64,000 nt of DNA, from positions 1 through 64,000 of the IMG/VR virus record IMGVR_UViG_3300032240_002419, one strand, 5' to 3'. How positions within the stretch are numbered: position 1 is the first letter of the stretch; each line of letters opens with the position of its first letter. The DNA is from a virus. Positions 5,583 through 38,259 of this stretch are shown piece by piece. The translations under genes were made by a program, and so were the position numbers. Below the pieces are notes generated by a model that was not told the DNA's origin, searched no databases, and saw only the letters and a list, made by a program, of their open reading frames with translations.

Positions 5583-5630
5583 GAATTGCAATTAACCAAC
5601 AACACCAAAACCCAAAATACCAAAACACGT

Positions 5631-6383
5631 ATGGCAGCTATAACATTCAATCCCAAGGGCGGAGCAGTCGTTAACACCCCCAAGGACGAAACCCCGGCAC
5701 AGGTGACCCTAGAGGTAGCCACAGCTCAGAATCAATCTCTGGCTGTTACCCCTTCGCCTCTCCCCGATACCGGAAACATCACCCGCGACGACATTCTTCT
5801 CCCCCGAGTCAATCTGGTGCAGAAGTCTGGCAAACTTTGTGACGACTTCCCTCCGGGAAGCTTCCTGTTTGAAAAGCAGGTTGTGATTGCAAAACCGAGC
5901 GAAGGGTTTTTCGCCGTGGTCCTCGGACACACGAAGTATTATCAGGAGAAAGTCGAATACGGCTCGGACGATTTTGGCCGTCGCGCAAATACCGAAGACG
6001 AGGTCCGCAACATGGGCGGAACTACGACTTGGGGCGTTGCCGACAAGCCTTACTTCCAACCCGTGGCTGACCTTCTCATGGCCGTTAAGGCTCCTGAGGG
6101 CGCAGACGAAGAAACTCTGTCTCTGTTCCCGTTTGAGCACAAAGGAGAGCATTATGCGATTGCGGTTTACACGGTTGCTTCATCAGCCTATACCTCTCTC
6201 GCAAAGAGAATCTTCACGGACAGCCTTTATACTCTTAAGGCAGGTCTTCACCTCGGTGAGTACCACATCAAGAGTGAACTGAAGCGTAACGCAGCTAACA
6301 GCTGGTACGTTCCAGTCACCGGGATGCCTAAGAAGTACAACGATCCCGAGAAGGCGGAATTCTTCGCCAGCTTGAGGAACTAA
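5631..6383 (+). CDS. Possible ssDNA-binding/recombination accessory protein
   Basis: The ATG at 5631 is preferred over an in-frame TTG at 5586 because it follows an A/C-rich leader like other genes here. The 250-residue product has a disordered N-terminus, then a conserved-looking core beginning DILLPRVNLVQKSGKL, a pattern I associate with phage proteins of unknown function encoded beside RecB-like nucleases. Its position between the nuclease and the polymerase suggests an ssDNA-binding or annealing role, but no diagnostic motif is seen. That role is inference only. Confidence 0.5.
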   Translation: MAAITFNPKGGAVVNTPKDETPAQVTLEVATAQNQSLAVTPSPLPDTGNITRDDILLPRVNLVQKSGKLCDDFPPGSFLFEKQVVIAKPSEGFFAVVLGHTKYYQEKVEYGSDDFGRRANTEDEVRNMGGTTTWGVADKPYFQPVADLLMAVKAPEGADEETLSLFPFEHKGEHYAIAVYTVASSAYTSLAKRIFTDSLYTLKAGLHLGEYHIKSELKRNAANSWYVPVTGMPKKYNDPEKAEFFASLRN

Positions 6384-6526: not shown

Positions 6527-8320
6527 ATGCCCATCGCAGCTGTTGACTTTGAAAGTTACTACGACGACGAGATCAGTATTGGCACGCTCGGCGTTCATCA
6601 TTACTTACAGAAGACGGACATCTATCTCGTAAGCATCGCCACCGACACGGGGATAAAATACGTCGGTCACCCCAAAAATTTTGATTGGAGCCAAATCTCA
6701 GGGCCGGATTGGATCTGGTTATCGCACAATACGGGTTTTGACTGGCCCGTCTTCCTGCGTCTTCAGGAACTCGGAGAGGGAAACATCCTGTCTGTCACCG
6801 AAATCGGCCAGTGGTATGATACCGCAGACCTTACAGCTTATCTTGGTTACCCTCGATCGCTGAAAGAGGCCAGCAAGTACCTCCTCGGGCAGGAAATCTC
6901 CAAAGACACCCGAGACAAGATGAAAGGCAAGGCTTGGGAGTCCATGACACCCGAATTCAGGGCAGAAGTTGAGGCTTATGCGCTCAAAGACGCCGAAAAC
7001 TGCCTCAATTTGTGGCTTCATCATGGGCACAAATGGCCCGAAGACGAGCGGGAAATCAGTCAGGTAACCCGCGAAATGTGCTATCGGGGAGCTCCTTTAG
7101 ACGCAAAAGGGCTTGATGACGACATTCTGAAGCTGGAAACCGACCTCTGGAAGCTTAAACAAAGTATTCCATGGAAGGATACCCCACATCGCGATCCTGC
7201 CAAGGCAAGGAAGGGAGAGACTACGGCTATTCTGTCCCCAATCGCCATTCGCGAGGAGTGCCTGAAACACGGACTGGCGGCTCCCGCTAGTTTTGCCAAA
7301 GACGACCCGGAAGCCGAAGAATTCTTTGAGAAATACGCTCAGACCTACACATGGGTTGGGGCTGTCAGGGATTACCGCAGGGCAACTAAGCACCTTGCCA
7401 CGCTCAAGACGATGAAGAATCGCATGCGCGAGGATGGATGGATGCCATACGGGTTGAAATACTTTGGTGCTCACACGGGTCGCGACAGCGGTGACACCGG
7501 ACTCAACATGCAGAACCTACCCAAGGGACTAGTGGCCGGGGTTGACGTACGATCCAAGATCAAGGCTCCCAAAGGATACACCTTGGCCATCGTAGATTTG
7601 AGCCAGATTGAGCCGAGGTGCTTGCACTGGCTGGCCAACGACGACACGACACTTGAATACATCCGAGAAATCCCTGATCTGTACGAAGCACAGGCTCGTG
7701 CATGGAAAATCTGGAACGGCGAAGGGAGCATGAAGAAAGAAGCTCCTGACGTTCGTCACATGATGAAACAGCTTGCCTTGGGTCTGGGGTATGGAATGGG
7801 AGATAAGAAGTTCGCCGAGGTGGCGAGCGTAACTCCCGAAGAGGCCAAACGCCTTACCGCGCTATACCGTAAGAAAAATCCCAAAGTTCTTACCTTATGG
7901 AAATCGTTGGAAAAGTCCATGCGCAAGGCGGTCTATGAGCCGGAGCGGACTTTCCACCTGTTGCTTCCCTCTGGTAGAATCATGAACTACCGAAACGTGG
8001 AAGTGAACGGCGACAAGCTGTCTGCCGCGATTTCTCGCCAAGGGAAACTCCTGCAGATGAGTGTGTGGGGCGGGGTTCTGACCGAAAACTTGGTTCAGGC
8101 CACGGCACGCGAAGTCTTCATGCACCATTGTGCGGAAATCGAGAAAGCAGGGATTCCCGTCATCATGCGTGTCCACGACGAAGCGGTGTGTCTAGTTTCT
8201 GAAAAGAACGCAGAAGCAAAGCTTCAACAAATTATACAGATCATGTCCGTAGCTCCTTCATGGGCTCAAGGACTACCCCTCTCCGCAGAAGGATCACTCT
8301 CCAAAGTCTACAAAAAATGA
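6527..8320 (+). CDS. Family A DNA polymerase with 3'-5' exonuclease domain
   Basis: A 597-residue replicative polymerase. The N-terminal DEDD exonuclease shows Asp7/Glu9 (AVDFES), Asp72 in SHNTGFDWPVF and Tyr151-x3-Asp155 (YALKD). The polymerase domain has motif A IVDLSQIEPR (Asp357), motif B DVRHMMKQLALGLGYG (Arg410, Lys414, Tyr422) and motif C MRVHDEAV (His550, Asp551, Glu552). There is no 5' nuclease domain, as in T7-like phage polymerases. It is expected to copy the phage genome with the primase-helicase encoded next, whose ATG overlaps its stop. Confidence 0.95.
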   Translation: MPIAAVDFESYYDDEISIGTLGVHHYLQKTDIYLVSIATDTGIKYVGHPKNFDWSQISGPDWIWLSHNTGFDWPVFLRLQELGEGNILSVTEIGQWYDTADLTAYLGYPRSLKEASKYLLGQEISKDTRDKMKGKAWESMTPEFRAEVEAYALKDAENCLNLWLHHGHKWPEDEREISQVTREMCYRGAPLDAKGLDDDILKLETDLWKLKQSIPWKDTPHRDPAKARKGETTAILSPIAIREECLKHGLAAPASFAKDDPEAEEFFEKYAQTYTWVGAVRDYRRATKHLATLKTMKNRMREDGWMPYGLKYFGAHTGRDSGDTGLNMQNLPKGLVAGVDVRSKIKAPKGYTLAIVDLSQIEPRCLHWLANDDTTLEYIREIPDLYEAQARAWKIWNGEGSMKKEAPDVRHMMKQLALGLGYGMGDKKFAEVASVTPEEAKRLTALYRKKNPKVLTLWKSLEKSMRKAVYEPERTFHLLLPSGRIMNYRNVEVNGDKLSAAISRQGKLLQMSVWGGVLTENLVQATAREVFMHHCAEIEKAGIPVIMRVHDEAVCLVSEKNAEAKLQQIIQIMSVAPSWAQGLPLSAEGSLSKVYKK

Positions 8321-10488
8321 AACTCTTTTCCCTACAAAATCTAACCACACATGTCGCAAACGTCACCGATGACGCCACGCTAGGCTCTTCGCCGAACCCT
8401 CGCCCTAATTTGGCCAATAAGCAGGCCTACAACGATTGGTGCAGGGCATCTACTACGAAGGGTTTCTTCATATCGGCTTGGGAGGGTATTAATCCTCAGG
8501 GTCGCGTGGTAGCACAGAATCCGGGCAGATTGCTGCACGGGATCATTGCTGACTACGACAACGCCAATGCGGCGTCCCTGCTGAACAATCTACCGACCAG
8601 CACGTCCTATCTGCCGACGTGGGTCATCGACAGCTTCACCCCCGGAAAGTGCCGACTCATCTGGCCCTTCGAGAACCCGGTGATGGTCTCCAATCCGGAG
8701 CTTACCGAACAGTTCCTGAAGGTGCTGGATGAGAAGGTCAAGATCAGTGATGCGCTTCCCGGATTCGACAAGTCGAGCTGGAAGGACTCGCAGTACTTCG
8801 AGATGGGGACCAACTGGAGGAAGATCACCGAAGCCCTACCGCTGGCTGATGCTCTGCTCGCTCAGTGCATGATGGAAGCGGGTACCCGCAAGCCGATTGA
8901 CACGGGCGACGTAGAGATTCCTCTGGACGTTATCGCCGAAGAGGTCGAGGCTCGCTGGCCCGGTCGCTGGCCTGTTGGAACATTCACGGAGGGCGTCGTG
9001 GGACCCTTGTTCTGGATCGAGCCTTTCGTCAACCATCGCAGCTGTGCGGTGGCGGTCAACGGGATGATCTGCTATTCGGATCGCGCACCATCCAACTTCG
9101 TGCCTTGGAGAGCTATCTTGGGCAACAAGTTTGTGGAGAAGTACGAGCAGGACAAAGCTGCTCGGGTAGCGGAGATGTTCTGGTTCGACGGTGGGAACTA
9201 CTGGACCGAGCAGAACTCGCCCGGATACTGGAGGACCTTCAGCCGGACGGATGCCCAGCTTCACCTCAAGAGTGCGGGCTGCAGCTTGCGTCAGCGCCGG
9301 GGTAAGCCGACCAACGAGGTCGAGGAAGTGCTCAAGTACATCCATGATCACCGGTATGTCAACATGGCGGTACCCCTGCTCTTCGAGCGCGAGAAGCTGG
9401 TCCACTACAACGGCAAGAAGCTGCTCAACATCTCCAACAAGATGGTCATGCAGCCTGCCGAGACCGGGGACCCGAAGGACTTTCCTTGGCTACACAACTA
9501 TTTCATGAACTGCTTTGACGGGGACCAAGACGGGATTCCGGCAAAAGAGTTCTTCTTGGCTTGGTTCAAGCGGTTCTACCAGTCCAGCTACGAGGGCGAC
9601 CCACAACAAGGCCAGTCCATCGTCATAGCGGGCGAGGCTCATACGGGTAAGAGCTTCATGAGCCGTTGGGTCATTGGAGCCGCCCTAGGTGGTAGTTGCG
9701 AGGCCTCGGACTTCCTCCTCGGTAATACTAAGTTTAACGAGGAAGCGGCCCATAACGCGGTCTGGCTTTGCGACGATGCAGTCGCTCAGGGAGATCTCAA
9801 AACTAAGCAGGAGCTGGCCCTACGACTCAAGGCTATGGCTGCCAAGCCGACGGTCCGGTACGAGCCCAAGTTCGTCAATGCCGCAGAGCTTCCGTTCAAG
9901 GGACGGGTGGTGGTCTGCTGTAACGTGGACCCGGAGTCCCTCAGGATTCTCCCGACCATGGATGGTACCATCAAGGACAAGATCATGCTCTTCCGCATCG
10001 ACCCGGAATTCGCACCTGTCTTCCTACCTAAGAACTCGGAGAACGAGGGGCGGGTCATGCGGGAGATGCCCTTCTTCCTTCGCTGGCTCTTGGACTACCA
10101 AGTCGACGAGAGGGTGGTGGATCGGAAAAACACCCGGTTTGCGGTCAAGAGCTTCCATCACAGGGATCTCATTGACGAGGCCAACAGCGAACAGCCTGAG
10201 GCCCGTCTGGCGGAAATGATCGCCCAGATCATGAAGGTGAAGCGGGGCGACGTGAAGCCGGGTGCCACCTGCCGCATGAACGTCACCGAGCTGATGCAGG
10301 CAGCGGACGATGCTCAGGTCTCCCGTCACATTCAGTCGCTCGGGGGAATGCGTAACGTCGGCAAGCTGCTGCACAAAGTTATCGAACAAAACTTATCGCC
10401 TTTTATCACGGATCGGCCTAGAAAGATTAATGGTTATCCAACCTACACTTTCAACCCCCACCTTCATACCGAAGAAACCTACGACTGA
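8317..10488 (+). CDS. Primase-helicase (AEP-like N-terminus, SF3-like helicase)
   Basis: The ATG at 8317 overlaps the polymerase stop and is preferred to upstream in-frame starts, giving 723 residues. The N-terminal part has LLHGIIADYDNANA (Asp79, Asp81), resembling the catalytic D-x-D of archaeo-eukaryotic primases. The C-terminal part has Walker A GEAHTGKS (439-446) and a Walker B-like AVWLCDDAV (481-489), as in D5/SF3-type phage and plasmid replication helicases. It would unwind the origin and make primers. The iteron array about 1.3 kb downstream is a natural substrate candidate. Codon use is more GC-rich than in the preceding genes. Confidence 0.85.
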   Translation: MKLFSLQNLTTHVANVTDDATLGSSPNPRPNLANKQAYNDWCRASTTKGFFISAWEGINPQGRVVAQNPGRLLHGIIADYDNANAASLLNNLPTSTSYLPTWVIDSFTPGKCRLIWPFENPVMVSNPELTEQFLKVLDEKVKISDALPGFDKSSWKDSQYFEMGTNWRKITEALPLADALLAQCMMEAGTRKPIDTGDVEIPLDVIAEEVEARWPGRWPVGTFTEGVVGPLFWIEPFVNHRSCAVAVNGMICYSDRAPSNFVPWRAILGNKFVEKYEQDKAARVAEMFWFDGGNYWTEQNSPGYWRTFSRTDAQLHLKSAGCSLRQRRGKPTNEVEEVLKYIHDHRYVNMAVPLLFEREKLVHYNGKKLLNISNKMVMQPAETGDPKDFPWLHNYFMNCFDGDQDGIPAKEFFLAWFKRFYQSSYEGDPQQGQSIVIAGEAHTGKSFMSRWVIGAALGGSCEASDFLLGNTKFNEEAAHNAVWLCDDAVAQGDLKTKQELALRLKAMAAKPTVRYEPKFVNAAELPFKGRVVVCCNVDPESLRILPTMDGTIKDKIMLFRIDPEFAPVFLPKNSENEGRVMREMPFFLRWLLDYQVDERVVDRKNTRFAVKSFHHRDLIDEANSEQPEARLAEMIAQIMKVKRGDVKPGATCRMNVTELMQAADDAQVSRHIQSLGGMRNVGKLLHKVIEQNLSPFITDRPRKINGYPTYTFNPHLHTEETYD

Positions 10489-11533: not shown

Positions 11534-11702
11534 GGAGACTCCGGGCACGGTGTCTCCTGTCTGCTCCAGATGGTTTCTACCTACTGGATGCGGTGACTGA
11601 CACGTTCTCCGGTGAGGGAACCTTGGTCGCCGCTTATGGCGGGGGAGGCATTGAGGGCTGGAAAGATAAACCAGAGCGACCTGAACCTCCCCCGACCTTT
11701 TT
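11534..11702 (+). ncRNA. Small RNA candidate with intrinsic terminator, beside the origin
   Basis: No convincing protein is encoded here, but the sequence is rich in helices. A 5' hairpin pairs GGAGAC (11534-11539) with GTCTCC (11552-11557) and CCG with CGG inside. Near the 3' end, CGGGGGAGG (11640-11648) pairs with CCTCCCCCG (11686-11694), enclosing CTGG/CCAG (11658-11661/11671-11674), and TTTTT follows at 11698-11702. That is an intrinsic-terminator layout. A possible promoter starts at 11498. The RNA would be about 170 nt and would point toward the iteron array; an antisense or primer role in replication control is speculation. Confidence 0.45.
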
Positions 11703-11781
11703 ATAGGGACGGATTTTACAAAACCTATACTTTTGAGGGCGATAGACGGCCGATTGATTCGATCTATTCGATGCCACGGTA

Positions 11782-12252
11782 GGGGGAGTGAGGGGGAGTG
11801 AAGCTTGTTATATTCATTGTTAAATTGTCACCCTGCATCCCTGTTTCAGAAATTAGTGGTTCTTGAATATAATATTTTTAATGTTATATTTTTTGTTATA
11901 AAAATTTCAGTTTGGATTGAAGAAAGGGTATTTAACGTATTTAATGGCCCTTATTTAGGTGAGTGAGATTTCAGGGGGAGTCAAAATCGGGCTTCACTCC
12001 CCCAAGTTAAGTGGCTCAGGACGACAGGGTTACAACGAAAAAGTGAGTAGGGGGAGTGAAGGGAGTGTTTTTTAAACGCACCCATTATATAGCATGGTGC
12101 ATATACCATATACCCTATATATCTATCTTTATATTAATTTTAAAAATACACTCCCCTCACTCCCCCTATCAATATAAATATCTGTAAAATCAACAACTTA
12201 ACTTGGGGGAGTGAGATTTTTTTTCACTCCCCCTCACTCCCCCCACTCCCCC
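11782..12252. other. Iteron array, candidate replication origin
   Basis: The 10-mer GGGGGAGTGA occurs exactly four times on the + strand (11782, 11792, 12050, 12205) and four times inverted as TCACTCCCCC (11994, 12157, 12224, 12234). Near copies lie at 11974 and 12243. Two pairs are in tandem. AT-rich DNA (about 11860-11945 and 12080-12200, including TATATAGCAT and ATATACCATATACCC stretches) lies between the clusters. Repeated protein-binding sites next to easily melted DNA are the usual design of iteron origins in phages and plasmids. The primase-helicase gene ends about 1.3 kb upstream. No protein is encoded here. Confidence 0.65.
11994..12214. repeat. 19-bp perfect inverted repeat spanning the AT-rich core
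   Basis: TCACTCCCCCAAGTTAAGT at 11994-12012 is the exact reverse complement of 12196-12214. Each arm contains one iteron plus a 9-base extension (AAGTTAAGT). The arms frame 183 bases that include the AT-rich segment and two more iterons. This could mark the borders of the melting region or allow a large cruciform. Confidence 0.7.
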
Positions 12253-12749
12253 TAACGGGTCTTTGGCTTGTGTTTTACTCTGTTAACCGAGTCCCTTGAC
12301 GTTCTGTTACCCTGATCCCTGTCAAAAATTACGGTGGTTCCTTGTTACAGGGTCGCAGGGTCGCAGGGTTACCCTGAGATGCCCCGCCTTAACGCGCTAT
12401 AGGGCCTGTGGCTTCGTTTTGTTGTTTTTGCGACCCGTTGTGGCCGAACAAGGTTTTTGGGCAAAATTTTTTGCAGCAGGGGGGAATATCGACTTACGCT
12501 CCCGCGACCCCCGCCCACCCCCGCACCCCACCCCCGGGTGCTCACGCGCATTATGCGCAAGCGCATCACGCCCACGTGACGCGAGCGTAACGCGACCCCA
12601 GAGCGAAGCTCTGACTTCGGCAAGGTTGGGCAAGGTTGGCCATAAAGGGTATCGACGGCATCGACCGATCGAAACTGATCTTTCACATTACACGGCGGTC
12701 GGACAGAGCAAGTCTGACCACAGGAGCTACGTAACCAATAACAGGTAGC
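12253..12749. other. Non-coding GC-rich stretch with short repeats and hairpins
   Basis: I see no believable gene here; the open frames on both strands give proline- or arginine-rich nonsense. It holds a tandem GGGTCGCA pair (12350-12365), tandem CAAGGTTGGG (12621-12640), and hairpins GCGCA-TTA-TGCGC (12546-12558) and CAGAGC-GAA-GCTCTG (12599-12613). A very C-rich run lies at 12500-12537. It continues the origin-like non-coding block. Confidence 0.6.
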
Positions 12750-12812: not shown

Positions 12813-12985
12813 TTCCACTAGTGGAAATCTCGTAATACAGGAAGGGCTTCCTGTAATCCGCTTTGCGGAGCCAAGAAAAAGATACGCTTTGCGTCATCTG
12901 GCTAAAACAGGAAGCCCCTTTCCTACGGAACCTTCCTTCTCTGCAACCTGTCCACAATCGACGCTTGCTCCTTCGGAGCATGTGG
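12813..12985 (+). ncRNA. Multi-hairpin leader upstream of the gene at 13027
   Basis: A 14-bp palindrome TTCCACTAGTGGAA (12813-12826) is followed by a competing pair of structures. Bases 12847-12855 can pair with 12836-12844 (9 bp), or 12844-12854 (GGGCTTCCTGT) can pair with 12907-12917 (11 bp). The second form encloses hairpins TCCGC-TTT-GCGGA (12857-12869) and ACGC-TTT-GCGT (12884-12894). Then TGCTCC-TTC-GGAGCA (12966-12980) is enclosed by CCACA/TGTGG (12952-12956/12981-12985). Mutually exclusive stems in a leader suggest a regulatory switch. No known class is recognised. Confidence 0.5.
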
Positions 12986-13026
12986 GAAACTGGTGGTGGG
13001 TAGGTAATCAGAGAAAGGAAACATAC

Positions 13027-13461
13027 ATGAACGCATCAACCAATGCAGTCGCAGTCGTCAACAGCCTCAACACCCGTGCTTTGCTCCGCAAAGATGGAGA
13101 AGTCCGTGGCACTCGCTACACCTTCGGTGGAACCGAGACTCCTTCGGAACTCCGCAAGCGACTCAAGGAATCCGGGCTGAAGGGGAACAAGCTGTCCACG
13201 GCTGTCCGTGAAGTGCAGATGGGCAAGCTCCACGCCTCCTTTGTGGAGACCCAAGCCTTCGTGGAATACATGCGGAAGGAAGGTTTCATCCCTGCTGGTG
13301 GTCAGATCACCGCAAGGGCTGGCAAGATTGACTTCGTCAAGATGACTGGCGGAGCCAAGACCGCCAAGACGGAATCCCAGATCCGCGAAGCTGCGGTCGC
13401 CGATATTTTGGCGAAGCTCCGTGCTCTCGGACTCGACGAAGCAACCCTTGCTTCCCTGTAA
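13027..13461 (+). CDS. Hypothetical protein with strong RBS
   Basis: The ATG at 13027 is chosen because AGAAAGGAAA lies just upstream, one of the very few Shine-Dalgarno-like sites in the window; longer in-frame starts would read through the hairpin leader. The 144-residue, basic product contains TPSELRKRLKESGLKGNKL, which looks like a helix-turn-helix or short DNA-binding segment, and an Ala/Leu-rich C-terminal helix. The separate long leader and ribosome binding site suggest a strongly expressed or tightly controlled gene. Its position next to the candidate origin makes an origin- or nucleoid-binding role possible, but unproven. Confidence 0.65.
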   Translation: MNASTNAVAVVNSLNTRALLRKDGEVRGTRYTFGGTETPSELRKRLKESGLKGNKLSTAVREVQMGKLHASFVETQAFVEYMRKEGFIPAGGQITARAGKIDFVKMTGGAKTAKTESQIREAAVADILAKLRALGLDEATLASL

Positions 13462-13524: not shown

Positions 13525-13800
13525 ATGACAACACCTACACCCAAACCCGTTCGGTCGTGGTGGAACTCGCACATCAAGTGCGATTCCCACGGCAAGTATG
13601 ATCCCGTCTTTGACGGGGACTGGTCATTCAAACAGACCTGCAAGTTTCATCGGATCAAGGAGAAGCTACCCGATCCCAAGCTCCAACGTCTCAAGCTAGT
13701 GCTTCGCCTAGCTGAAGCGGACAAAGACCGACCTGCATGGCAGGCTTCCGAGAAGGAACGCCTTATTGCAAAGTATCGGGAGCTGGTTCGGAGTCGTTGA
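13525..13800 (+). CDS. Small hypothetical protein
   Basis: A 91-residue basic protein beginning MTTPTPKPVRSWWNSHIKCD. A CDSHGKYDPVFDGDWSFKQTCKFH stretch, split as C-x2-H near residue 19 and C-x2-H near residue 41, might bind zinc. The C-terminus is helical and Lys/Arg/Glu-rich. It overlaps the 3' end of the convergent HTH gene by 38 bases. No family recognised. Confidence 0.55.
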   Translation: MTTPTPKPVRSWWNSHIKCDSHGKYDPVFDGDWSFKQTCKFHRIKEKLPDPKLQRLKLVLRLAEADKDRPAWQASEKERLIAKYRELVRSR

Positions 13801-14371
13801 CGGGTTGGCTACCCGACTCCAACTCCTGAACATCCTCGGAGGGTGACGCATCGGTGACACATTCACCCTCGATGATGTCATCTTGGACGTTTGCTCGGAG
13901 ACGATCGTTGACCACCTGCAGTTGCACAATCGTATTGTGTTTCGCCTCGCCGTCATCGAGTCCGAGCACTCGCCGCATCATCTTGTCCGCTATGTCAAAG
14001 TCTTTCCAAGTCCGAGGCGGAGCGATAACGGTCTGCGACAGAATCTTAAAGAGTTTGTCCGCCGACTTATGTCGGTATTGTTTAGCTATCTCATCCAAGT
14101 CTGTCGATGTAGCGACGGAGTTTTGAGGGGCTTTTGCCTCATTAAGCTGATCAATTAGAGACTGGTTCTGTGCGACCCTGCTATTGTGCAACCCTGCAAC
14201 CTTGTTCAACCGATTCTGAACACGCTTCGGAGTGTTCCAGTTTTCTCTGTTGCTCCGCATCCTAACAGCGGCTTCAGAGATGCCGAACAACTTGGCAACC
14301 TCCCTCTGGGAAGTTCCCTTTTCACAGCTTTCGCGGATCTTATCCCACGGAACGTCAAGAGCTTTCGGCAT
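13763..14371 (-). CDS. HTH protein, terminase small subunit-like or regulator
   Basis: This 202-residue protein opens with DVPWDKIRESCEKGTSQREV and continues KLFGISEAAVRMRSNRENW, a helix-turn-helix of the sort found in terminase small subunits and in phage regulators. A central helical region and an acidic C-terminal tail (residues 160-202) follow, as in many TerS proteins. It is about 47 kb from the TerL gene, so the TerS call is not secured by context. A perfect inverted repeat at 14374-14399 directly before its start suggests autoregulation. It may recognise packaging DNA, an operator, or both. Confidence 0.6.
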   Translation of the reverse strand: MPKALDVPWDKIRESCEKGTSQREVAKLFGISEAAVRMRSNRENWNTPKRVQNRLNKVAGLHNSRVAQNQSLIDQLNEAKAPQNSVATSTDLDEIAKQYRHKSADKLFKILSQTVIAPPRTWKDFDIADKMMRRVLGLDDGEAKHNTIVQLQVVNDRLRANVQDDIIEGECVTDASPSEDVQELESGSQPVNDSEPAPDTLQ

Positions 14372-29258: not shown

Positions 29259-29414
29259 ATGAAAAAAAACTTGTTTTGGCCTTTGTTTATTGTGTGCTTC
29301 CCCGTGATCTTTGTTATTTGGTCTTCGGTGATGCTGTTTATACCTTCGGCTATGTACGGAGTGTCCAAGGGCGGAACGGCTTTGTCAAAGGCTGCTCCTC
29401 CCCTTATCCGTTAA
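29259..29414 (+). CDS. Small membrane protein
   Basis: The ATG at 29259 gives 51 residues with one long hydrophobic segment (LFWPLFIVCFPVIFVIWSSV) after a short Lys-rich start. The segment continues into MLFIPSAMYG. It overlaps the 3' end of the convergent giant gene by 11 bases. It marks the switch from rightward accessory genes to leftward virion genes. Confidence 0.5.
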   Translation: MKKNLFWPLFIVCFPVIFVIWSSVMLFIPSAMYGVSKGGTALSKAAPPLIR

Positions 29415-32400
29415 TCTTGAGTTTTCCCGTCAACACGTCGCGTTCGACCTTTGCTTTGGCATAGGCCGTAGCGGCGTGATTGATGCTGGGACCGTCCAGT
29501 ATGGACTGAGCCAGATCCCTATCCATCTGGGTCAGCCTTTGAACGAGCTGTGGAGTAAGAATCTTCTTCAGCAGCTCACCCCTGTAGATAACGAACTGAC
29601 GCCATGCGGCGTCTCCTGAATCGTTCAGGGTCTTATACTCGCCCTTCTTGTTTACGAGAATTTCCGTGGACTTCTTAGGTCCAGACAGGAACAGCCCATG
29701 ATCCAGCAGAGGATTGAGGATAGGGTCAGGGGGTGCCTGAGCCACAAACAGCCACCTGTCCGTTAGCGGATCGGTTGCGGCGTGAGTGATCGGGTTCCCC
29801 AAGATGTTGAGGGAAGGCTGGTTGTAACCCAGATAGAAGGGCATGAACTGCGCCGCTTTGCCAGCCGCCGAGGTAAGGTCAAGGTTATTGACTTCGCGCC
29901 CCGTTCCTTGGGTGGCGATCGAGTTGCGGATAAACCGCATGATCTGAGGATTGGTAAACTGGCTGGCTGTTCCGGCTAGCTGCTTGACAACCGCTTTGGG
30001 GGCCGAAGCACCCTGAGGGTCGTGCAGCACGTCGATAAGATTCTTTGCTCCGCTAAGGAAGTGATGCTCCAGAGGGCTCATGGCCACTCCGAGCGCCATC
30101 CTCCAGATAGCGTCTCCAGCATAAACATCCGGCCTCTGAATTACTCCGTGAACCTTCTTAATTGCCGGAGCGTCAAAAGTCATGTAGTCGTGCAGGGTAC
30201 CCAGCATGGTTCCCAGCAAATCAACTCCGGGCATAGCCTTGTACGGGATGTAGGTGTCCCCAATCTTGAGAGTATTGGGACGTGCTCCCGAGGCCATCCA
30301 CTCGCTGCGCTTGGCGTAGTCTTTGGGACCCGCCCCGTAGAACATGAAATCGGGTTTCTTGCCCGTTTCCATTTCGTCGTGCAGCTGCTTCAGGAACCAA
30401 GCGGTAATGGCCGTGGCTACCACGGTTCCAAAGGCAGACTTGGCCATGAGAGCGTACTGATCGGCCGACCCTTCCACGTATTTACCAAACGCGTATTTGG
30501 AGTCTTCTCCCAGCAAAAGATTGGACAGGGTGCGATTCTTGGCTTTGGCAAATCCGAGCGGGCTATAGTCCAAGCTGTTATTCATCAGGTTGCTGATGAT
30601 CCTGACGAATGGGAAGATGAACTGAGTAACCTTAGTCTTGCGGTTCAGGGTCCCGATGATTCCGTCGGCCACCATTCCCGCCAGTCCTTTGGCGTCGCCC
30701 TTGAGGGTCCAATCCTTAGTCAGCTTGTCAATCCGCTCTCCCTTGAGAAGATCCATAAGATCCTTGCCTGTGGAGATCTCTTGGTGCAACTGCTCAAGGC
30801 GGTTGGCCATAGAGAACTTGTTGTCCCACTTGCCCATGTTCTCAAAGAATCCGGAATCAACTTCTTTCTGAAGCTGCTCCCTTGCCGCAGCCATCTCTTC
30901 TTGTGTGGGGGCAAAGACAGTCCTCATCCTCTCGGCGAGTTCCTTTCCTTTGATTCCGCCGTTCAGGAGGGCCGCTCTCATGGCCATGCGTTGATTGAGT
31001 TCCCTAGCGGAGTTCGCGTTAAGAGCGTCAAAGGCAGACATGAACCTAGGTAGAATCGCCATGGCCCCGGCATACTTCTGGAACCACTTAGGACCTACCC
31101 CTTCTTTCAGGAGGTCCGCTCCGCGCTTTCCAATTCCCTGCTCCAGACCGATACCAATCTGTCCCGTGGTAAGAGCACGGAGAGCCTCGCGTCCAAACGG
31201 GTTACCTCTTGCGCCCTTGTCGCCCAGCAACATGGTATCCAAGAAATCTTTCAGGTATCCCACGCTCTCTTGGAACGAGTTACCTTTACCCACAGACTCA
31301 ACGAATTGACCGAAGGTTTGGAAAGCACCCTGCAACCGGACGTTGACGAATCCGCTGAAGCCGTGCGTCAGGAACGTCGGGGGCCCGGTAAGAATCGCGG
31401 ACCGGAAGATTTCAGGTAGAATGTTAAAGGCTGCCTTGGCTGCCTGTACCCCACCGGCTTTGAGCTGCTGGTTGATGATCTCGTTTGCGATCATTCCTTG
31501 GAAGTTGGTCAGCTGCACGTTGCGCTGATCGCTGTTCTCAGGGAGTTTCATGATTTCATCAGCTTTCTCCCTGACCGCTTTTACAAAGTCTGCATCGTAA
31601 CCTCCAATTCCTAGGCTCTCCAATAGGGTTTGATGAATATTGTCTTCGTCAAACTTGCCTAATTTAATGTACTCTTCCAGCTTCTTTGCCATCTCAACGG
31701 GCTTTACGGCACCCTTGGTGGCGTAGGCTTCAAACACGGCTTTGGGCAGGTCAGTCGCAGCGATCTTTTGAACCGCCTTGTTGAACAGTCCGGCTAAGTT
31801 TCCGGTGAGAGACTCGACGGTCTCCGGAGGAGCTCCCTCGGGGAGCATCTGAGCAATGAAAGCCTTCAGGTCGCTACGGTTAAACTCGTTACCGGAAAGC
31901 AACTGAGTCAGCTGTGAGATCTGCTCCGGGTCGGTGATTCCCGATTTAGACAGGAGATCAGAAGCCGCCTTCATTGTGGCTTCCGCAGCCCTGAGTTTGA
32001 TGGACGTGATGCTGTCCATGAGGCCCTGCAGATTGATCTTGCCCTTGGTAAGATCTTCCACGCTTCCGCCTAGGGTTCCCTTAAGGAACTGGTCGACGTA
32101 GTCTCTTGAAGACAGCTCGTCGATATTCTTGCCGGTATTAAGCACCTGTCCGCTGGCGCTCAAGGTTTTCACAGATAGGTTATGAGCCTCGATATTCAGC
32201 CTGTTGGCCTTTTTCAGCTCTAAGCCCTCGGCTATTGACAGAGGCCCCGTGCTCTTTTTATCCAACAAGTCCTGAACCACCTTTTGATATTCTCTCTCGG
32301 CGCGGATAAATCCACGATTGATAGCCGCCAACGAGTATTCTGCGTTGGGGTTAGACAGCATTTTCTTCAAACTATCATAAGCCGCATCAGTACCAACCTT

Positions 32401-35400
32401 CTTAAACAGGTCGTCCATTTGAGCGTCCCACTTGGGATTTGATCCCGTCTCGTATTGGTTCGGAGCGTAGGCAGCCCGGTTTTCTTCAGTAAGGTACTGT
32501 TGATCACCCTCACGGGCGGTAGATTCTTTTGTGGCAGGAGATTGGGCACGGAGTTCTCCCTCGTTCTCACGAGTAGCCGGGGTCATGCCAATAAGTTCAT
32601 TCAACCATGCCTCATCTTCTGGAGACGTTTTTGTTTTCGGAGCTACTCTTTTCGTCCCAAGATTTTGTTTTATCTCTGCATACGTTTCCGGAAAAACCAA
32701 GCTCAACGCTTGTCTGGCCGCAATGTTTGATTCTATACGAATGGCCATCGCCATCCTTTCCACGCTCGAATAGTCTTCGTTGTTTTTAACGTAATCCCAA
32801 ATCTTTTTGTAATTTTGAGTTTTGATGGACTCGTTTTTGAACCCCTCGCGTTGTACGTTGAAATTACTTGCCAAATTGTACAGGATTTCAAAGGTAACCC
32901 TACCGTACTTAGGGTAATCGGTCATTGCCCGCTTCATTAAAGTAGTCCGTAAAGAAGAAGGAAGATTTGGATTTTGAGTTAAGAAAGTATCAATGATCGG
33001 GTTATTTAAATCTGCAAATGCTTTATAGTTACCGGCTCGATCCTGCCCCAGCTCATCTTCCAAAATTTTTCGCAGTTCGCGTCCTTCACTTTCGTTCTCC
33101 AAATAGGGCATTCCCTTTTCTTCGATCTTTGTCGGATCGAATTCCGGATTTCTTTCAACAAGCTGTTTGGCTATTTTTTGAATTCTTTCCGGGGAAGTTG
33201 AAGGATTTTTCAATTCAAACAGCTCGTAGTTCTTAAGCTGATCGCGTCGCGCGTCGAGCAATTTTGAAATGTCCTGACTGTACTCTTCCGGAATCGTCCC
33301 GTTGTTTGCTTTACCCTGTATCTCTGCAATCTTGCCGCCGTCAATTATGCGAATAGCAGCAGCGGGTCTGTCGCCATGGGTGAGTATCCACATGCCCCCC
33401 TCCTTAAGATACGGCTCAGCGTTATAAGTTTTTGTGCACCAGTTGTCGTGCGAAAGAGATTTTAGATTGTCGACATTGGTTTGAAAATTTTGAGGATCTT
33501 CCGATCGGGAAGGTATGTAAATCCACTCTCTATTTTCTGTAGCTTTTACCGTATCGGCAGCATTTTTAATGGCGTAGTCCGCAAGACTTTTTCGGTACGC
33601 TTTCAGAAGATCAAAATTTTGATCCTTAGGATGTAAAGCGACTTGTTCCCTCAAACGAGCTAAAACACCCGGGTTTAGCGGCAGAGTCTCGCCAGCTCCG
33701 TAAGCTCGGTCAGAAGACAAAGCATTGTAGAGCATCTCGTGAACCATAGCCTGCCAATAGGGATCTTTAGCGTATTCTTGATTCCCTTCCGTTAAATAAT
33801 TTTTCCATACGGAATAGTTTTCTTCACGCTCTTCGGAAACTTTTTTGGCCATCTGACTGGCTTTAAGTTTTTGCGCTTCTTCACTATCGGACAGGAACCT
33901 ACGGGCTGCTTCCCCTCCCTGTCCTGCATTATCTTGATTAGCGTATGCTTCCTTAACCAAGATAGCCGCCATATCATCAATCGATATTACTAACTTGTTT
34001 TGAGTCTTAGAAACGATTCCGTTAACGATTGAATCAATCTGCTCAGGCAGGTTTTTTTTATTTAGGTCAATCAGCTTTTCGTATTTCTCCACAAACAGGC
34101 GACCAGTATCGCTTTCGCCCAATCCCATCTTGACAGCCTTCTTGTATGCAGCCTGAGCAAATAGCGACCACCGCTTGGGGTTGCTGCTAATTTCTCGGGT
34201 TTTGTTGGACAGCATGTTGTAGCTCTTTTCGGCAAAATCCAACTGACCGGAAAGCGTAGCATCTTCTGGAGCATACCGTAGTTTTGCTTGCAGCCAGCGC
34301 GTGATGTTTTTGATGTAGTCCATCAGAGCACCAAGGATGCTAGGATTGCGATCCACTTCACGCATCACTTCGGTGGTGTGCCCCATACGCATCATCTGAC
34401 GCAGCATACGGGTATACTCCCAGCCAACTTGGAAATTGCTCTTCAGGAAGAAATTGATCCGGTCATTGCTCGCGTTCTTACCCAAGTAGAATCTGGCGAG
34501 CTTTAGCTTCTCTTCGTTGGATAGCTTGGCTCCGATTTCCGTTAAACGATCCTGAGCTTCAGGGCTGAACGTTCCGGTCTCGTCGATGACGCCAGCGATG
34601 TGCTCTACCTCTTCGTCACAGGCAGCCTCGATGTATTTACGAGCCTGCTCTTCGGTCATTCCACGAATCTGATTTTCCAACAGGTTCACATCGTACCGTA
34701 CTCCAAACGAATTGTCGGCTGTGTTGATGTGGGCCTCCATGACTCCGGCCGTTTCTCCGGGTTTGGCTCCGGCGTTCATGTCCGGGTCGGCGTAGAACTC
34801 TACCCCGGGGAACCGGTCTTGTAGGGTGGACCGGATATACTCGTGGGCGTCCATCGGAATCTCTCCCTCGGTCTTGGCCGTAGCCATGCGGGCAGAGCGA
34901 GCTCCAATGTCGGCCCTCTCGTGCAGTCCGTCGAGAATCTGGTCAACGGTAAAGCGATCGGCAATACGGGTCGCTTGGCTTACCAGCGCCTTACGCTCCC
35001 GTTCCGGAATGTCAGAGAATTGTGCAGCCAAACGAACGACGTCCTCGGCACTCAATTCCTTGGCCTCTACCAAGGCTCGCAGTAAGGCAACCTTGTCGAC
35101 GAGTTTTGTATCGGCAGCTTCAATCTTCTTAACTGCCTGATCCTTGAGTCGGGAAGCGATAGCCTCCGCAGTCTCTACGGAGACTTCGCCGGGAAGACGA
35201 TCTTCGGTGGGTTTGAAAACTTCTTCGCTGTCTTCAGGCGCAATTCCGCTCTCGGCAAAGTGATCTTGAAATTCCGTACCGGATTCCCCAAGCGGAGCAT
35301 TCAGAGAGACAGTGGCAGTACCTCCGGTCTTCATGCGCCTACGAATTTCGTCTATTTCGCTCTTTGATTTACGTAGGGCTTTGTTGACCTCTTTCTGAAA

Positions 35401-38259
35401 AGCGGGACCGTCTTCGATCTTTGCGAGGAATCCTTCTTTCTCTCCGCGCATCTCCTGAGCGACTCGGCCCATGAACTCGGTGATTGCACCCCAGCGCATG
35501 GCATACTGAGCGTCGTCATCATATCCCCGATAAAGATCCAGCGGGGGGAAGCTCCTCAGTCGGGAGATATTTTTGTCGCCCTCGGGGTTCTCATAGACTC
35601 CGTATTCTTCTTCGGAGAAAGGGGTCTCCTCTCCCCGCTTGCCTTGACTCGGAAGGGCGGGTTCCTCTTCTTCAATCTTTCCTTCACGGATGGCTTTCTC
35701 ACGAGCTTCGCGTAGGCGGTCTTCGCGTTCGATTTCTTGCTCTACCTTGCCCTTGCGGTTCTGAGTCCTTTTCTTAGCTTCCTCGGATTGAGTGAGCTCG
35801 CGTTCTAGAGTACCCCCTAACCGGGTAGTCAATGCATTGTTCAGCCTGATCAGAATCTGGTTAAAGGGCGTTTTCTGCTCGGGGGGAAGGGAATTTACAA
35901 TCGCGTTGTAGGTGTCCGTGGACTCCTTGAGATAAGCGGAAGGACTGAGGCGATTGGTCTGGGAATAGATCCTGTCGGCCTCGGTTCGGTTTTCTACGTT
36001 CCGCTTGTACCACAGCAAAGCGTTTTCGAGCCGGTCAGTCGGCATCGGGTTCTCAGCCATGACGCTTCCCGGATCGGGGTTGGTCTGAGTACTGATCGTT
36101 CCCTTGTCGGTTTTGCGATTCTTGCCCGTCTTCTTGAGGTATTTATTAATGAAGGTGGCAATCTGCTGCTGGCTGAAATTTCCGTTCTGGCCGGTGGGTT
36201 TGATTTTTCTAGCCTCGATAACGGCGTCAAACTTGGAAGGACGAACAATAAACTGACCGGACTCCGGATCGTACTCGAACGAGATTGCGGGATTGAATTG
36301 CTGCGGATCGTCCATGTTGACGAATCTCGGTACAACTGTGTCTTCGCCCCGGAGCTGACGAATCTCAAGAGCTTGAGGATCATTGATCCAGTTCTCGATG
36401 TGACCCAGATCCTCTTTGGCTTTAACAGGATTTTTAAGGTACTCGTTGGAGTAGTCCCACAGGTCCTTAAGTCTCGGCGCGATCTCTTCTCCAAATGCAG
36501 CTCGCATCCTATCCGACCAAGCGGCGAAATCCGTGACTCCATCATTTATGAGCTTGGCTCCCTGAATCGAAAGGCCCAGATCTTTCTTAAGTCCAGCGCG
36601 GGGATCTTCTTCGGCCTTGGTTGCCGGGGATTTGGCAGCCAATTCGGTAGTGCCTCCCAGTAGATCGTCACCCAGCTTAAATAGGTCATCGAGGTCCTGC
36701 TTCTGGGGAACGGCGGGCTCTTCTGTAGCGATAGGTGCCTCGGTCGAGATGGGCTCCTCTGCAGGCATTGCTTCACCATTCTGGACCCGTGCAATTCTTT
36801 GACGAATGCTGTCGGCTAGTTTAGCGGCATCGGATTTGGTCTTGGCGTTGCCCCTCTGCTGTCGAATTCTTGTCTCCAAAAGGAGCTCGTTTAGTTTGTC
36901 AACATTCCCTGCCTTTTCAGCCTCGACCGCCTGAGCCTGAAGTTGAGGAATCGCCGTCCGTACGTGTTGACGATTGCGCTGCTTGTAGTCTTCAGCAACA
37001 AGCTGTTTCTCGCCGTCGATCGGTTGAGGGGCCTCAACAATCGGAGCGGTAGCAGCTTCAACTTTTTCGGTTTGTTCTGCAGCAGGGGTCTCGGTAACAC
37101 CCGGCGCAACCTGTTGGATCGGCTCGGCGGGCGAAGATTCCAAAGGGAGCGGTAGTTGCTCCTCTTTAGCTGGTTCGGCTTCGGTTACCGGCTTTTGTCC
37201 CTTTTGCAACTCTGGCAGCACGCCGGTTTGCTCGACATTCGGCTCAACCGCGATTGGTTCGCTGACGGCTGGCGTTGTGCCTGCAGTGCTTGGCGTAATG
37301 GGTTCTTGCTCTGGGGTTTTTTCATTGACTGCTGGGGTTGTGGGTTTGGTTGCTTGTAGCGCATCTGCGGTCTCGCTTGCCCCGGAGCTGCGTAAAGTTT
37401 CATCCAATTTCTGACTGGCTTCTTCGGAGACAATGTCCGGAACTTCGGGTTCGGGAGCAGTCTTCTTCTGGGGTTTGTTAAAAGTCGTTGGCGTCTGAGT
37501 CTGCTGCTCGGAAGCCTTAAACGGATCGAGGAACATGCCGCCCGGACCAACATACGGCTTGACGGCCATTCCTGCGGCCCCCTTCAGGGCTGCGGTGCCA
37601 AGGTCTTCTCCTTGTGCAACCCCCATGCCTGTCTGGGTTCCGATAGCGGCCGTCCCCCCGATTGCATGACCAAAGTTCTCCAGAGCTTCTTTTGCGGCTT
37701 TGCCCTCTGGGGTAGCTTGTTGAGACAGCGTTTGTAATTCCTTGACGCCGCCTTTCTTGGCCATGGCTGCCGCGACATCCTTGATACCCTGTCTCCCTGC
37801 AGTCGTGCCAACCGCTTTCACTAAACCGCCAGCCGCTTTCAGGCTGGGTCGGCCCGTGCCAAGCAAGCCTCCGGCAAACGTTGCCCAAGGATGTTCCTTC
37901 TCCTCCTTTTCGGCCGTTTCGGTACCGAGGAAAGATTCCGGAGCGTACTTGTTTGCAAGAATATCTTGTCCTTTGCGAGCCGCCATGCCTGCTCCGAAAG
38001 CACCCGCAACACCCAGCACCGGAACAGCGATGGGAGCTAAGGGTCCGGCCGCTAGTCCAAGAGAGCCCATCGCAAGTGCTCCCCCCATTCCGGCAACTCC
38101 GGGAACAACGCTACGGCCCGCTTCGTGAAGTAGCGCCGTTCCAGCGGAAGTGGGCGCTTCGGGTTCGGGAGAACTGTACGTCTCCTCCCATGGCATTTTG
38201 TTAGAAGGGGTTGCCTCTGGGGAGGCATACTCTTCTTCCCAAGGCATTTTGTCGGACAT
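29404..38259 (-). CDS. Giant polyvalent/internal virion protein (2951 aa)
   Basis: A 2951-residue single chain. Residues about 45-100 are hydrophobic Gly/Ala-rich, and a long Glu/Pro/Ala/Thr-rich disordered region follows (about 260-540). Near residue 985, TATVSLNAPLGESGTEFQDH resembles a piece of a sigma-70 factor. Near 1220 there is ACDEEVEHIAG, in a region that looks zincin-derived. Near 1605, SLSHDNWCTKTYNAEPYLKE with GGMWILTHGDRP and GKANNGTIPEEY recalls the PcfJ-like 'WCT' domain of polyvalent proteins. About 2250-2700 carries membrane-like segments (SAILTGPPTFLTHGF; FGTVVATAITAWFLKQL). I infer a protein packed in the virion and injected with the DNA. Confidence 0.75.
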   Translation of the reverse strand: MSDKMPWEEEYASPEATPSNKMPWEETYSSPEPEAPTSAGTALLHEAGRSVVPGVAGMGGALAMGSLGLAAGPLAPIAVPVLGVAGAFGAGMAARKGQDILANKYAPESFLGTETAEKEEKEHPWATFAGGLLGTGRPSLKAAGGLVKAVGTTAGRQGIKDVAAAMAKKGGVKELQTLSQQATPEGKAAKEALENFGHAIGGTAAIGTQTGMGVAQGEDLGTAALKGAAGMAVKPYVGPGGMFLDPFKASEQQTQTPTTFNKPQKKTAPEPEVPDIVSEEASQKLDETLRSSGASETADALQATKPTTPAVNEKTPEQEPITPSTAGTTPAVSEPIAVEPNVEQTGVLPELQKGQKPVTEAEPAKEEQLPLPLESSPAEPIQQVAPGVTETPAAEQTEKVEAATAPIVEAPQPIDGEKQLVAEDYKQRNRQHVRTAIPQLQAQAVEAEKAGNVDKLNELLLETRIRQQRGNAKTKSDAAKLADSIRQRIARVQNGEAMPAEEPISTEAPIATEEPAVPQKQDLDDLFKLGDDLLGGTTELAAKSPATKAEEDPRAGLKKDLGLSIQGAKLINDGVTDFAAWSDRMRAAFGEEIAPRLKDLWDYSNEYLKNPVKAKEDLGHIENWINDPQALEIRQLRGEDTVVPRFVNMDDPQQFNPAISFEYDPESGQFIVRPSKFDAVIEARKIKPTGQNGNFSQQQIATFINKYLKKTGKNRKTDKGTISTQTNPDPGSVMAENPMPTDRLENALLWYKRNVENRTEADRIYSQTNRLSPSAYLKESTDTYNAIVNSLPPEQKTPFNQILIRLNNALTTRLGGTLERELTQSEEAKKRTQNRKGKVEQEIEREDRLREAREKAIREGKIEEEEPALPSQGKRGEETPFSEEEYGVYENPEGDKNISRLRSFPPLDLYRGYDDDAQYAMRWGAITEFMGRVAQEMRGEKEGFLAKIEDGPAFQKEVNKALRKSKSEIDEIRRRMKTGGTATVSLNAPLGESGTEFQDHFAESGIAPEDSEEVFKPTEDRLPGEVSVETAEAIASRLKDQAVKKIEAADTKLVDKVALLRALVEAKELSAEDVVRLAAQFSDIPERERKALVSQATRIADRFTVDQILDGLHERADIGARSARMATAKTEGEIPMDAHEYIRSTLQDRFPGVEFYADPDMNAGAKPGETAGVMEAHINTADNSFGVRYDVNLLENQIRGMTEEQARKYIEAACDEEVEHIAGVIDETGTFSPEAQDRLTEIGAKLSNEEKLKLARFYLGKNASNDRINFFLKSNFQVGWEYTRMLRQMMRMGHTTEVMREVDRNPSILGALMDYIKNITRWLQAKLRYAPEDATLSGQLDFAEKSYNMLSNKTREISSNPKRWSLFAQAAYKKAVKMGLGESDTGRLFVEKYEKLIDLNKKNLPEQIDSIVNGIVSKTQNKLVISIDDMAAILVKEAYANQDNAGQGGEAARRFLSDSEEAQKLKASQMAKKVSEEREENYSVWKNYLTEGNQEYAKDPYWQAMVHEMLYNALSSDRAYGAGETLPLNPGVLARLREQVALHPKDQNFDLLKAYRKSLADYAIKNAADTVKATENREWIYIPSRSEDPQNFQTNVDNLKSLSHDNWCTKTYNAEPYLKEGGMWILTHGDRPAAAIRIIDGGKIAEIQGKANNGTIPEEYSQDISKLLDARRDQLKNYELFELKNPSTSPERIQKIAKQLVERNPEFDPTKIEEKGMPYLENESEGRELRKILEDELGQDRAGNYKAFADLNNPIIDTFLTQNPNLPSSLRTTLMKRAMTDYPKYGRVTFEILYNLASNFNVQREGFKNESIKTQNYKKIWDYVKNNEDYSSVERMAMAIRIESNIAARQALSLVFPETYAEIKQNLGTKRVAPKTKTSPEDEAWLNELIGMTPATRENEGELRAQSPATKESTAREGDQQYLTEENRAAYAPNQYETGSNPKWDAQMDDLFKKVGTDAAYDSLKKMLSNPNAEYSLAAINRGFIRAEREYQKVVQDLLDKKSTGPLSIAEGLELKKANRLNIEAHNLSVKTLSASGQVLNTGKNIDELSSRDYVDQFLKGTLGGSVEDLTKGKINLQGLMDSITSIKLRAAEATMKAASDLLSKSGITDPEQISQLTQLLSGNEFNRSDLKAFIAQMLPEGAPPETVESLTGNLAGLFNKAVQKIAATDLPKAVFEAYATKGAVKPVEMAKKLEEYIKLGKFDEDNIHQTLLESLGIGGYDADFVKAVREKADEIMKLPENSDQRNVQLTNFQGMIANEIINQQLKAGGVQAAKAAFNILPEIFRSAILTGPPTFLTHGFSGFVNVRLQGAFQTFGQFVESVGKGNSFQESVGYLKDFLDTMLLGDKGARGNPFGREALRALTTGQIGIGLEQGIGKRGADLLKEGVGPKWFQKYAGAMAILPRFMSAFDALNANSARELNQRMAMRAALLNGGIKGKELAERMRTVFAPTQEEMAAAREQLQKEVDSGFFENMGKWDNKFSMANRLEQLHQEISTGKDLMDLLKGERIDKLTKDWTLKGDAKGLAGMVADGIIGTLNRKTKVTQFIFPFVRIISNLMNNSLDYSPLGFAKAKNRTLSNLLLGEDSKYAFGKYVEGSADQYALMAKSAFGTVVATAITAWFLKQLHDEMETGKKPDFMFYGAGPKDYAKRSEWMASGARPNTLKIGDTYIPYKAMPGVDLLGTMLGTLHDYMTFDAPAIKKVHGVIQRPDVYAGDAIWRMALGVAMSPLEHHFLSGAKNLIDVLHDPQGASAPKAVVKQLAGTASQFTNPQIMRFIRNSIATQGTGREVNNLDLTSAAGKAAQFMPFYLGYNQPSLNILGNPITHAATDPLTDRWLFVAQAPPDPILNPLLDHGLFLSGPKKSTEILVNKKGEYKTLNDSGDAAWRQFVIYRGELLKKILTPQLVQRLTQMDRDLAQSILDGPSINHAATAYAKAKVERDVLTGKLKING

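What the first reader, a model, noticed from the sequence alone, without database searches (positions are those of the whole stretch)
11782..12252. Dense GGGGGAGTGA iteron array around AT-rich DNA: candidate phage replication origin
Seen: eight exact copies of one 10-mer within about 470 bases, four in each direction, some in tandem, plus near copies, and AT-rich segments between them. No gene fits here. The primase-helicase gene ends about 1.3 kb away. Established: iteron arrays next to AT-rich DNA are a common origin design in plasmids and several phages. Inference: this is the origin recognised by the encoded primase-helicase or by a small neighbouring protein. The G-run repeat is unusual for iterons and could also form G-rich single-strand structures.
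Basis: partly seen in the sequence, partly recalled or inferred. Interest (0 to 1): 0.8.

Follow-up and report, generated by a model that had tools for sequence, protein, structure and literature searches.

The report
Phage replication origin with switching iterons
A non-coding 300-500 base stretch of an uncultured phage is very probably its DNA replication start site: relatives keep the same spacing and orientation of short repeats around a melt-prone core at the same place, while the repeat sequence itself has been rewritten from phage to phage.

Summary
All eight exact GGGGGAGTGA copies in the complete circular genome (65,679 bp without its end repeat) lie at 11782-12243, four per strand, plus near copies, in DNA with no plausible gene. 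The main array is ordered: inner iterons converge on an 81-bp, 77% AT core, followed by a constant box (AATCAACNACTTA), a lone opposite iteron and three more. It lies 3' of a primase-helicase gene whose product models (pLDDT 88) as an NrS-1/poxvirus-D5-type helicase with an AEP-like N-terminus and a C-terminal winged-helix-like domain. A blind repeat scan of relatives (28-74% protein identity) finds an array 3' of the same gene in many, usually with the same spacing and orientations, but with different iterons (TTGGTGGATGA, GGGGTGGGTG, AGTGAGGGTA, TGTTAGGG, TGGTGATG, GTGACGTT). Three cultured phages (AH2, JS26, ER24) also carry arrays there. Best explanation: the replication origin, bound and opened by the primase-helicase, of the design known from SaPI/PICI and SCCmec replicons. 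The array marks the cumulative GC-skew maximum, not the minimum. G-quadruplex formation is not conserved. Function is inferred; no experiment exists. Some marine relatives show no array.

The parts
11782..11801 (+). two tandem exact iterons GGGGGAGTGA (outlying left pair)
11958..11966 (+). degenerate iteron GGTGAGTGA, in register with the first box of L010/L011/L012
11974..11983 (+). iteron, 1 mismatch (GGGGGAGTCA)
11994..12003 (-). exact iteron; starts a 19-bp perfect inverted repeat with 12196-12214
12050..12067 (+). inner left block: exact iteron plus degenerate GGGAGTG, pointing at the AT-rich core
12068..12148 (.). AT-rich core, 81 bp, 77% AT: presumed unwinding element; cumulative GC-skew maximum at 12067-12078
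12149..12166 (-). inner right block: CACTCCCC plus exact iteron, pointing back at the core
12188..12200 (+). constant box AATCAACAACTTA, kept in relatives with other iterons
12205..12214 (+). lone iteron directly after the constant box
12224..12252 (-). right outer block: two exact iterons and one with 1 mismatch
8317..10488 (+). presumed initiator: primase-helicase (DUF5906 / NrS-1- and D5-like), 723 aa from the conserved start (742 aa from 8260); winged-helix-like C-terminal domain about residues 640-735 of the 742-aa form
6527..8320 (+). family A DNA polymerase, conserved neighbour in the replication module

Best explanation
The array is the phage's DNA replication origin. Shown: an ordered, non-coding array of about 10-bp iterons that converge on an AT-rich core, a constant box, and a conserved position 3' of the primase-helicase gene in many relatives. 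Inferred: the primase-helicase binds the iterons as double-stranded DNA through its C-terminal winged-helix-like domain; two helicase rings assemble on the convergent inner blocks and melt the core; the N-terminal primase domain makes the first primers there, and the phage family A polymerase extends them in both directions. The iteron sequence has changed repeatedly while the layout was kept, as expected when one protein reads all copies and site and protein change together. The constant box probably serves a factor that did not change.
For: Array unique in the complete genome. In 10 of 11 relatives with enough 3' DNA the strongest two-strand repeat cluster of the contig is 3' of this gene. 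Further arrays were found down to 27-35% identity. The order >> | core of about 80-140 bp | <<; >; <<< recurs with similar spacing. The constant box precedes the lone iteron in lineages with different iterons. GC skew breaks at the array in four genomes. AlphaFold model pLDDT 87.8; Foldseek top hits are the NrS-1 polymerase C-terminal region (E 2.9e-12), then MPXV E5, ASFV PrimPol, vaccinia D5 and PriRep1 with dsDNA. The C-terminal domain is the most divergent part, 25% mean pairwise identity against 38-52% elsewhere. The prediction held in cultured phages: AH2 has 10 exact AGGTCCGAA sites in the 531 bp after its primase-polymerase gene, JS26 has CCTACGCAA sites, ER24 has GGTTACAA sites in the window's layout. 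Precedents: PMC6092414, PMC4234260, PMC7581432.
Against: No experiment. Iteron similarity does not track C-terminal-domain similarity beyond overall relatedness (partial r -0.09, permutation P 0.79), so the binding domain is not shown. The skew extremum is a maximum, not a minimum. The core is not AT-rich in L027, L028 and L062 (45-46% AT). Relative L038 and many marine relatives show no array. In the window, small ORFs and a DUF5856 gene lie between the gene and the array. Four more distant phage primases (PAE1, BUCT791, Milano, Sonora) showed no array.
Confidence: 0.78

Rival explanations
1. It is the origin, but the iterons are read by another phage protein (for example the HTH protein encoded at 13763-14371 or a small ORF), which then recruits the primase-helicase, as lambda O does for host helicase.
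For: An HTH-like protein encoded 3' of the array is conserved in most relatives near the array. Covariation did not single out the primase-helicase C-terminal domain.
Against: The HTH protein is not found in L039, a 44.7-kb contig with end repeats that has the array. Only replication-module genes recur in all array-bearing loci, the polymerase and primase-helicase among them. Precedents with this helicase type use the helicase's own C-terminal domain (PMC7581432).
Confidence: 0.12
2. The array is a partition (centromere-like) site or a packaging start site rather than an origin.
For: Centromeres and pac sites can also be arrays of short repeats in non-coding DNA.
Against: No ParA/ParB-like match among the proteins tested near the array. 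The terminase gene is at 61790-63589, far from the array. Position follows the primase-helicase gene across relatives.
Confidence: 0.04
3. It is a transcription control array (operator sites or an activator-binding enhancer) for the genes on its right.
For: Intergenic position; gene content changes there; three weak sigma-70-like matches.
Against: Promoter-like matches are at the chance level (3 against 1.9 +/- 1.3). Genes on the right differ between relatives while the array stays. A convergent layout around a core of fixed length is not typical of operators.
Confidence: 0.04
4. The G-rich strand acts as a structured single strand (G-quadruplex), independent of sequence-specific binding.
For: Several iterons are G-rich, and G4(3+) motifs exist in L012, L026, L037, L039 and L068.
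Against: No G4(3+) motif in the window, L036, L010, L011, L025, L064, L084, L094 or L099; several iterons lack G-runs.
Confidence: 0.02

Closest known systems
PICI/SaPI replicons (pri-rep-ori; PMC6092414)
   Same: Origin 3' of the primase/initiator-helicase gene; [quoted passage not shown] helicase structure related (PriRep1, PDB 7pds).
   Different: Found in complete 65-70-kb phage genomes with their own family A polymerase, not satellites; a more elaborate layout with a constant box and lone iteron; the 3' distance is about 0-5.6 kb, not always immediate; a different protein lineage.
SCCmec Cch2 / CCPol-MP (PMC7581432)
   Same: A D5-type helicase binds direct-repeat iterons containing AAGTG, downstream of its operon, through its C-terminal domain; the element's primase starts at the iterons. 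Some iterons here (GAAGTGG, AAGTGGGG) contain AAGTG.
   Different: Cch2 lacks a fused primase and its origin has three iterons; the shared AAGTG may be chance.
pRN1 plasmid and phage BIP-1 (PMC4234260)
   Same: An AEP primase + SF3 helicase + winged-helix protein with its origin directly 3' of the gene.
   Different: There the origin is a large stem-loop; the authors rejected the iterons they found in BIP-1 as an origin.
NrS-1 polymerase and its recognition sites (PMC8718748, PMC7102993)
   Same: Closest solved structure to the helicase part; it primes at TTTGGTTA and at GTGA/GTGG, and GTGA or GTGG lies inside 14 of 16 iteron types here.
   Different: The NrS-1 genome has only two copies of the 8-nt site; its C-terminal tail was described as having no known fold; no array reported.
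P4 alpha protein, SV40 T antigen, papillomavirus E1 (comparison partly from memory)
   Same: Initiator, helicase and (P4) primase in one protein acting at repeats beside AT-rich DNA.
   Different: No sequence kinship tested here; the eukaryotic viruses use an N-terminal origin-binding domain (PMC7581432).

Membership tests
PICI/SaPI-type iteron origin | origin 3' of the initiator-helicase gene | tested here: met
   (met on the 3' side; not always immediately adjacent: 1.3 kb in the window)
[quoted passage not shown]
   window core 77% AT; some relatives' cores are only 45-54% AT
PICI/SaPI-type iteron origin | element is a PICI: phage-induced satellite with int, rpr, xis | tested here: not met
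   complete 65.7-kb phage genome with terminase and tail genes; no integrase among the proteins examined, though not every gene was scanned
PICI/SaPI-type iteron origin | initiator C-terminal domain binds the iterons; segment replicates with the initiator | not testable with these tools
   needs binding and plasmid assays
NrS-1/D5-like primase-helicase | D5/SF3-type AAA+ helicase domain | tested here: met
   Pfam DUF5906 in all 14 members; Foldseek NrS-1 E 2.9e-12, E5/D5 about 1e-9
NrS-1/D5-like primase-helicase | N-terminal AEP (PrimPol) domain | tested here: inconclusive
   full-length alignments to AsfvPrimPol and MPXV E5, DxD-like invariant D98-Y99-D100, weak PHROG DNA primase matches; the domain was not searched alone
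pRN1-type replicon | winged-helix domain after the helicase | tested here: inconclusive
   H-E-H-H-H-E-E pattern at 646-731 with pLDDT about 80-90; not searched as a separate domain
pRN1-type replicon | large (about 100-nt) stem-loop as origin | tested here: inconclusive
   a 29-nt, 90% complementary inverted repeat with a 63-nt loop spans the core (12048-12168), but its arms are the iterons; a structure is not required by the data
G-quadruplex element | conserved G4-forming motif | tested here: not met

The most novel reading that the evidence does not exclude
The iterons have two jobs: double-stranded binding sites for the helicase, and single-stranded start sites for the fused primase, oriented so that primers made at the inner convergent iterons grow outward as leading strands. 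GTG[A/G] occurs in 14 of 16 iteron types, against 6.1 +/- 1.8 in letter shuffles, and is a known start motif of the NrS-1 primase (GTG for pRN1; PMC8718748). Rewriting all iterons while keeping the layout would then be a replicon-specificity switch, for example to escape competitors or satellites at the same origin.
Probability: 0.25. Interest if true: 0.78.

Novelty: new variant of a known kind. Interest (0 to 1): 0.6.

Why it matters
[quoted passage not shown] Here it appears in a broad group of uncultured phages and in at least three cultured ones, so it looks like a general design of primase-helicase phages. The coordinated change of 8-12 repeats at fixed geometry gives a natural set for asking how an initiator and its origin change specificity together, and the constant box shows what does not change. 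Origins of most phages are unknown; a blind two-strand repeat scan 3' of such genes finds candidates directly.

Tried and rejected
Rfam: no match at gathering score. The tandem 20-mer elsewhere in IMG/VR (L014) is an isolated pair without an array: rejected. G-quadruplex: not conserved. Promoter array: chance level. The CAGGGTTG 8-bp repeats beside the array as part of the origin: rejected as dispersed through the genomes. Specific covariation of iteron with the C-terminal domain: not found. First structure model from 8 sequences: pLDDT 45, not used for fold searches. Primase-helicase profile searches against sequences of solved structures gave no significant hit. tblastn of the primase-helicase in named phages: no match. 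Arrays in more distant named phages PAE1, BUCT791, Milano, Sonora: none; Kokobel1 unclear. AH2 genome paper: the main text contains no occurrence of 'repeat'. Records AY576273, AY986977 and NC_006938 are not held.

Full report
Observation. The window is bases 1-64000 of a 65,802-nt IMG/VR record with a 123-nt direct terminal repeat, so the genome is complete as a circular assembly of 65,679 bp. All eight exact GGGGGAGTGA copies are at 11782-12243, four per strand, with none elsewhere. The region has no plausible gene. The finding is real and far beyond chance.

Anatomy. Reading the G-rich strand as an arrow, the main array is: > 11958 (degenerate), > 11974, < 11994, then inner > 12050 and > 12061 (partial), an 81-bp core at 77% AT (12068-12148), inner < 12149 (partial) and < 12157, constant box 12188-12200, lone > 12205, and < 12224, < 12234, < 12243. 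A separate tandem pair lies at 11782-11801. The inner blocks form a 29-nt, 90% complementary inverted repeat around the core, and a 19-nt perfect inverted repeat surrounds it.

Relatives. A search with the primase-helicase found close relatives, and alignments reached 59 loci in IMG/VR plus one Verrucomicrobia MAG contig, a weak hint of host. A blind scan for 8-mers repeated on both strands, without reference to the window's motif, put the strongest cluster of the contig 3' of the primase-helicase gene in 10 of 11 relatives with sufficient DNA; L038 had none. Iterons differ: TTGGTGGATGA (L010, L011), GGGGTGGGTG (L012), GGGTGGAGC (L025), GGGTGGGGG (L026), TGTTAGGG (L027, L028), AGTGAGGGTA (L036), GGGTGGATG (L037), GGGGTGGAGATG (L039), and among more distant ones GAAGTGG (L062, L063, L066), AAGTGGGG (L064), AGTGGGG (L068), TGGTGATG (L084), GTGGTGGT (L094), GTGACGTT (L099), AGTTGAGA (L101). 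The order and spacing are retained in most: L036 reads >>> < >> | 108 bp | << > <<<, and L027 and L028 keep >>> | about 83 bp | << > <<<. L101 and L026 are less regular. A large set of marine relatives at about 31-35% identity shows no array with this scan.

Constant box. AATCAACGACTTA (up to 2 mismatches) stands just before the lone iteron in the window, L010, L012, L025, L027, L028, L036, L039, L084, L086, L094 and L103, and in reversed orientation in L037. It is rare elsewhere in the same contigs. So the iterons changed within otherwise recognisable DNA; this is not just loss of alignment.

The presumed initiator. The gene carries Pfam DUF5906. With 29 sequences the AlphaFold model has pLDDT 87.8, pTM 0.61. 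The best solved matches are the NrS-1 polymerase C-terminal region, MPXV E5, ASFV PrimPol, vaccinia D5 and PriRep1. Residues 646-731 have a winged-helix-like order of elements. That C-terminal part is the least conserved, 25% against 38-52%. I expected iteron similarity to follow it; it did not beyond general relatedness. This may reflect my hand-chosen iteron strings and the few lineages, or another binder.

Skew. In the complete genome the cumulative GC skew peaks at 12067-12078, inside the array, also after detrending, and skew falls from about 0 on the left to -0.10 to -0.18 on the right. A similar drop occurs at the array in G001, G002 and G006, but there the global extremum is not exactly at the array (1.5 kb away in G006, about 9 kb in G002, elsewhere in G001). 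The break supports a boundary at the array; the sign is opposite to the usual bacterial origin. Transcription modules could also cause it.

Generality. The fold search of viral models listed the primase-polymerase of Burkholderia phage AH2. I predicted an array 3' of that gene: AGGTCCGAA occurs 10 times exactly in the 531 bp after it and twice in the first 57,400 bases of the record. Among seven further named phages, Serratia phage JS26 (CCTACGCAA, two > and two < exact) and Salmonella phage ER24 (GGTTACAA in the order > | << > <<, two of the inner copies with one mismatch) have arrays; PAE1, BUCT791, Milano and Sonora do not; Kokobel1 is unclear. ER24 exceeds 300 local shuffles only narrowly (5 against a maximum of 4).

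Primase motif. GTG[A/G] is in 14 of 16 iteron types against 6.1 +/- 1.8 in letter shuffles, none of 20,000 shuffles reaching 14. NrS-1 primase starts efficiently at GTGA and GTGG, and pRN1 primase at GTG (PMC8718748). Caveats: the iteron strings were chosen by me, lineages are related, and AH2, JS26 and ER24 iterons lack the motif. It is a lead.

Verdict. The array is very probably the phage's replication origin, of the SaPI/PICI/SCCmec design, in a group where it had not been described as far as the literature search here shows. Membership in PICIs is not claimed. The new elements are the large phage setting, the fixed geometry with a constant box, and the repeated rewriting of the iterons.

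Noticed in passing
window 11826-11845, 12024-12033, 12306-12378: 8-bp repeats CAGGGTTG/CAGGGTCG, partly in tandem, beside the array and dispersed through the genomes of relatives; function unknown.
   Followed up: partly
window 11640-11703; L010 9240-9330; L011 10142-10238: Conserved hairpin GGCGGGGGAGGC...CCTCCCCCGACC, followed by T5 in the window; no Rfam match.
   Followed up: partly
window 12830-13026; similar in L011 and L036: Long leader with inverted repeats before ORF 13027-13461, recognisable in relatives; possibly a structured RNA.
   Followed up: no
window 5586-6383: ORF between exonuclease and polymerase; by synteny with phage AH2 probably the single-stranded DNA-binding protein.
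   Followed up: partly
L027, L028, L062, L063, L066 array cores: A GGC-repeat tract takes the left half of the core that is AT-rich in other relatives.
   Followed up: no
window 13763-14371: HTH-like protein on the minus strand, conserved 3' of the array in most relatives.
   Followed up: partly
window 29404-38259: ORF of 2951 aa on the minus strand, not examined.
   Followed up: no
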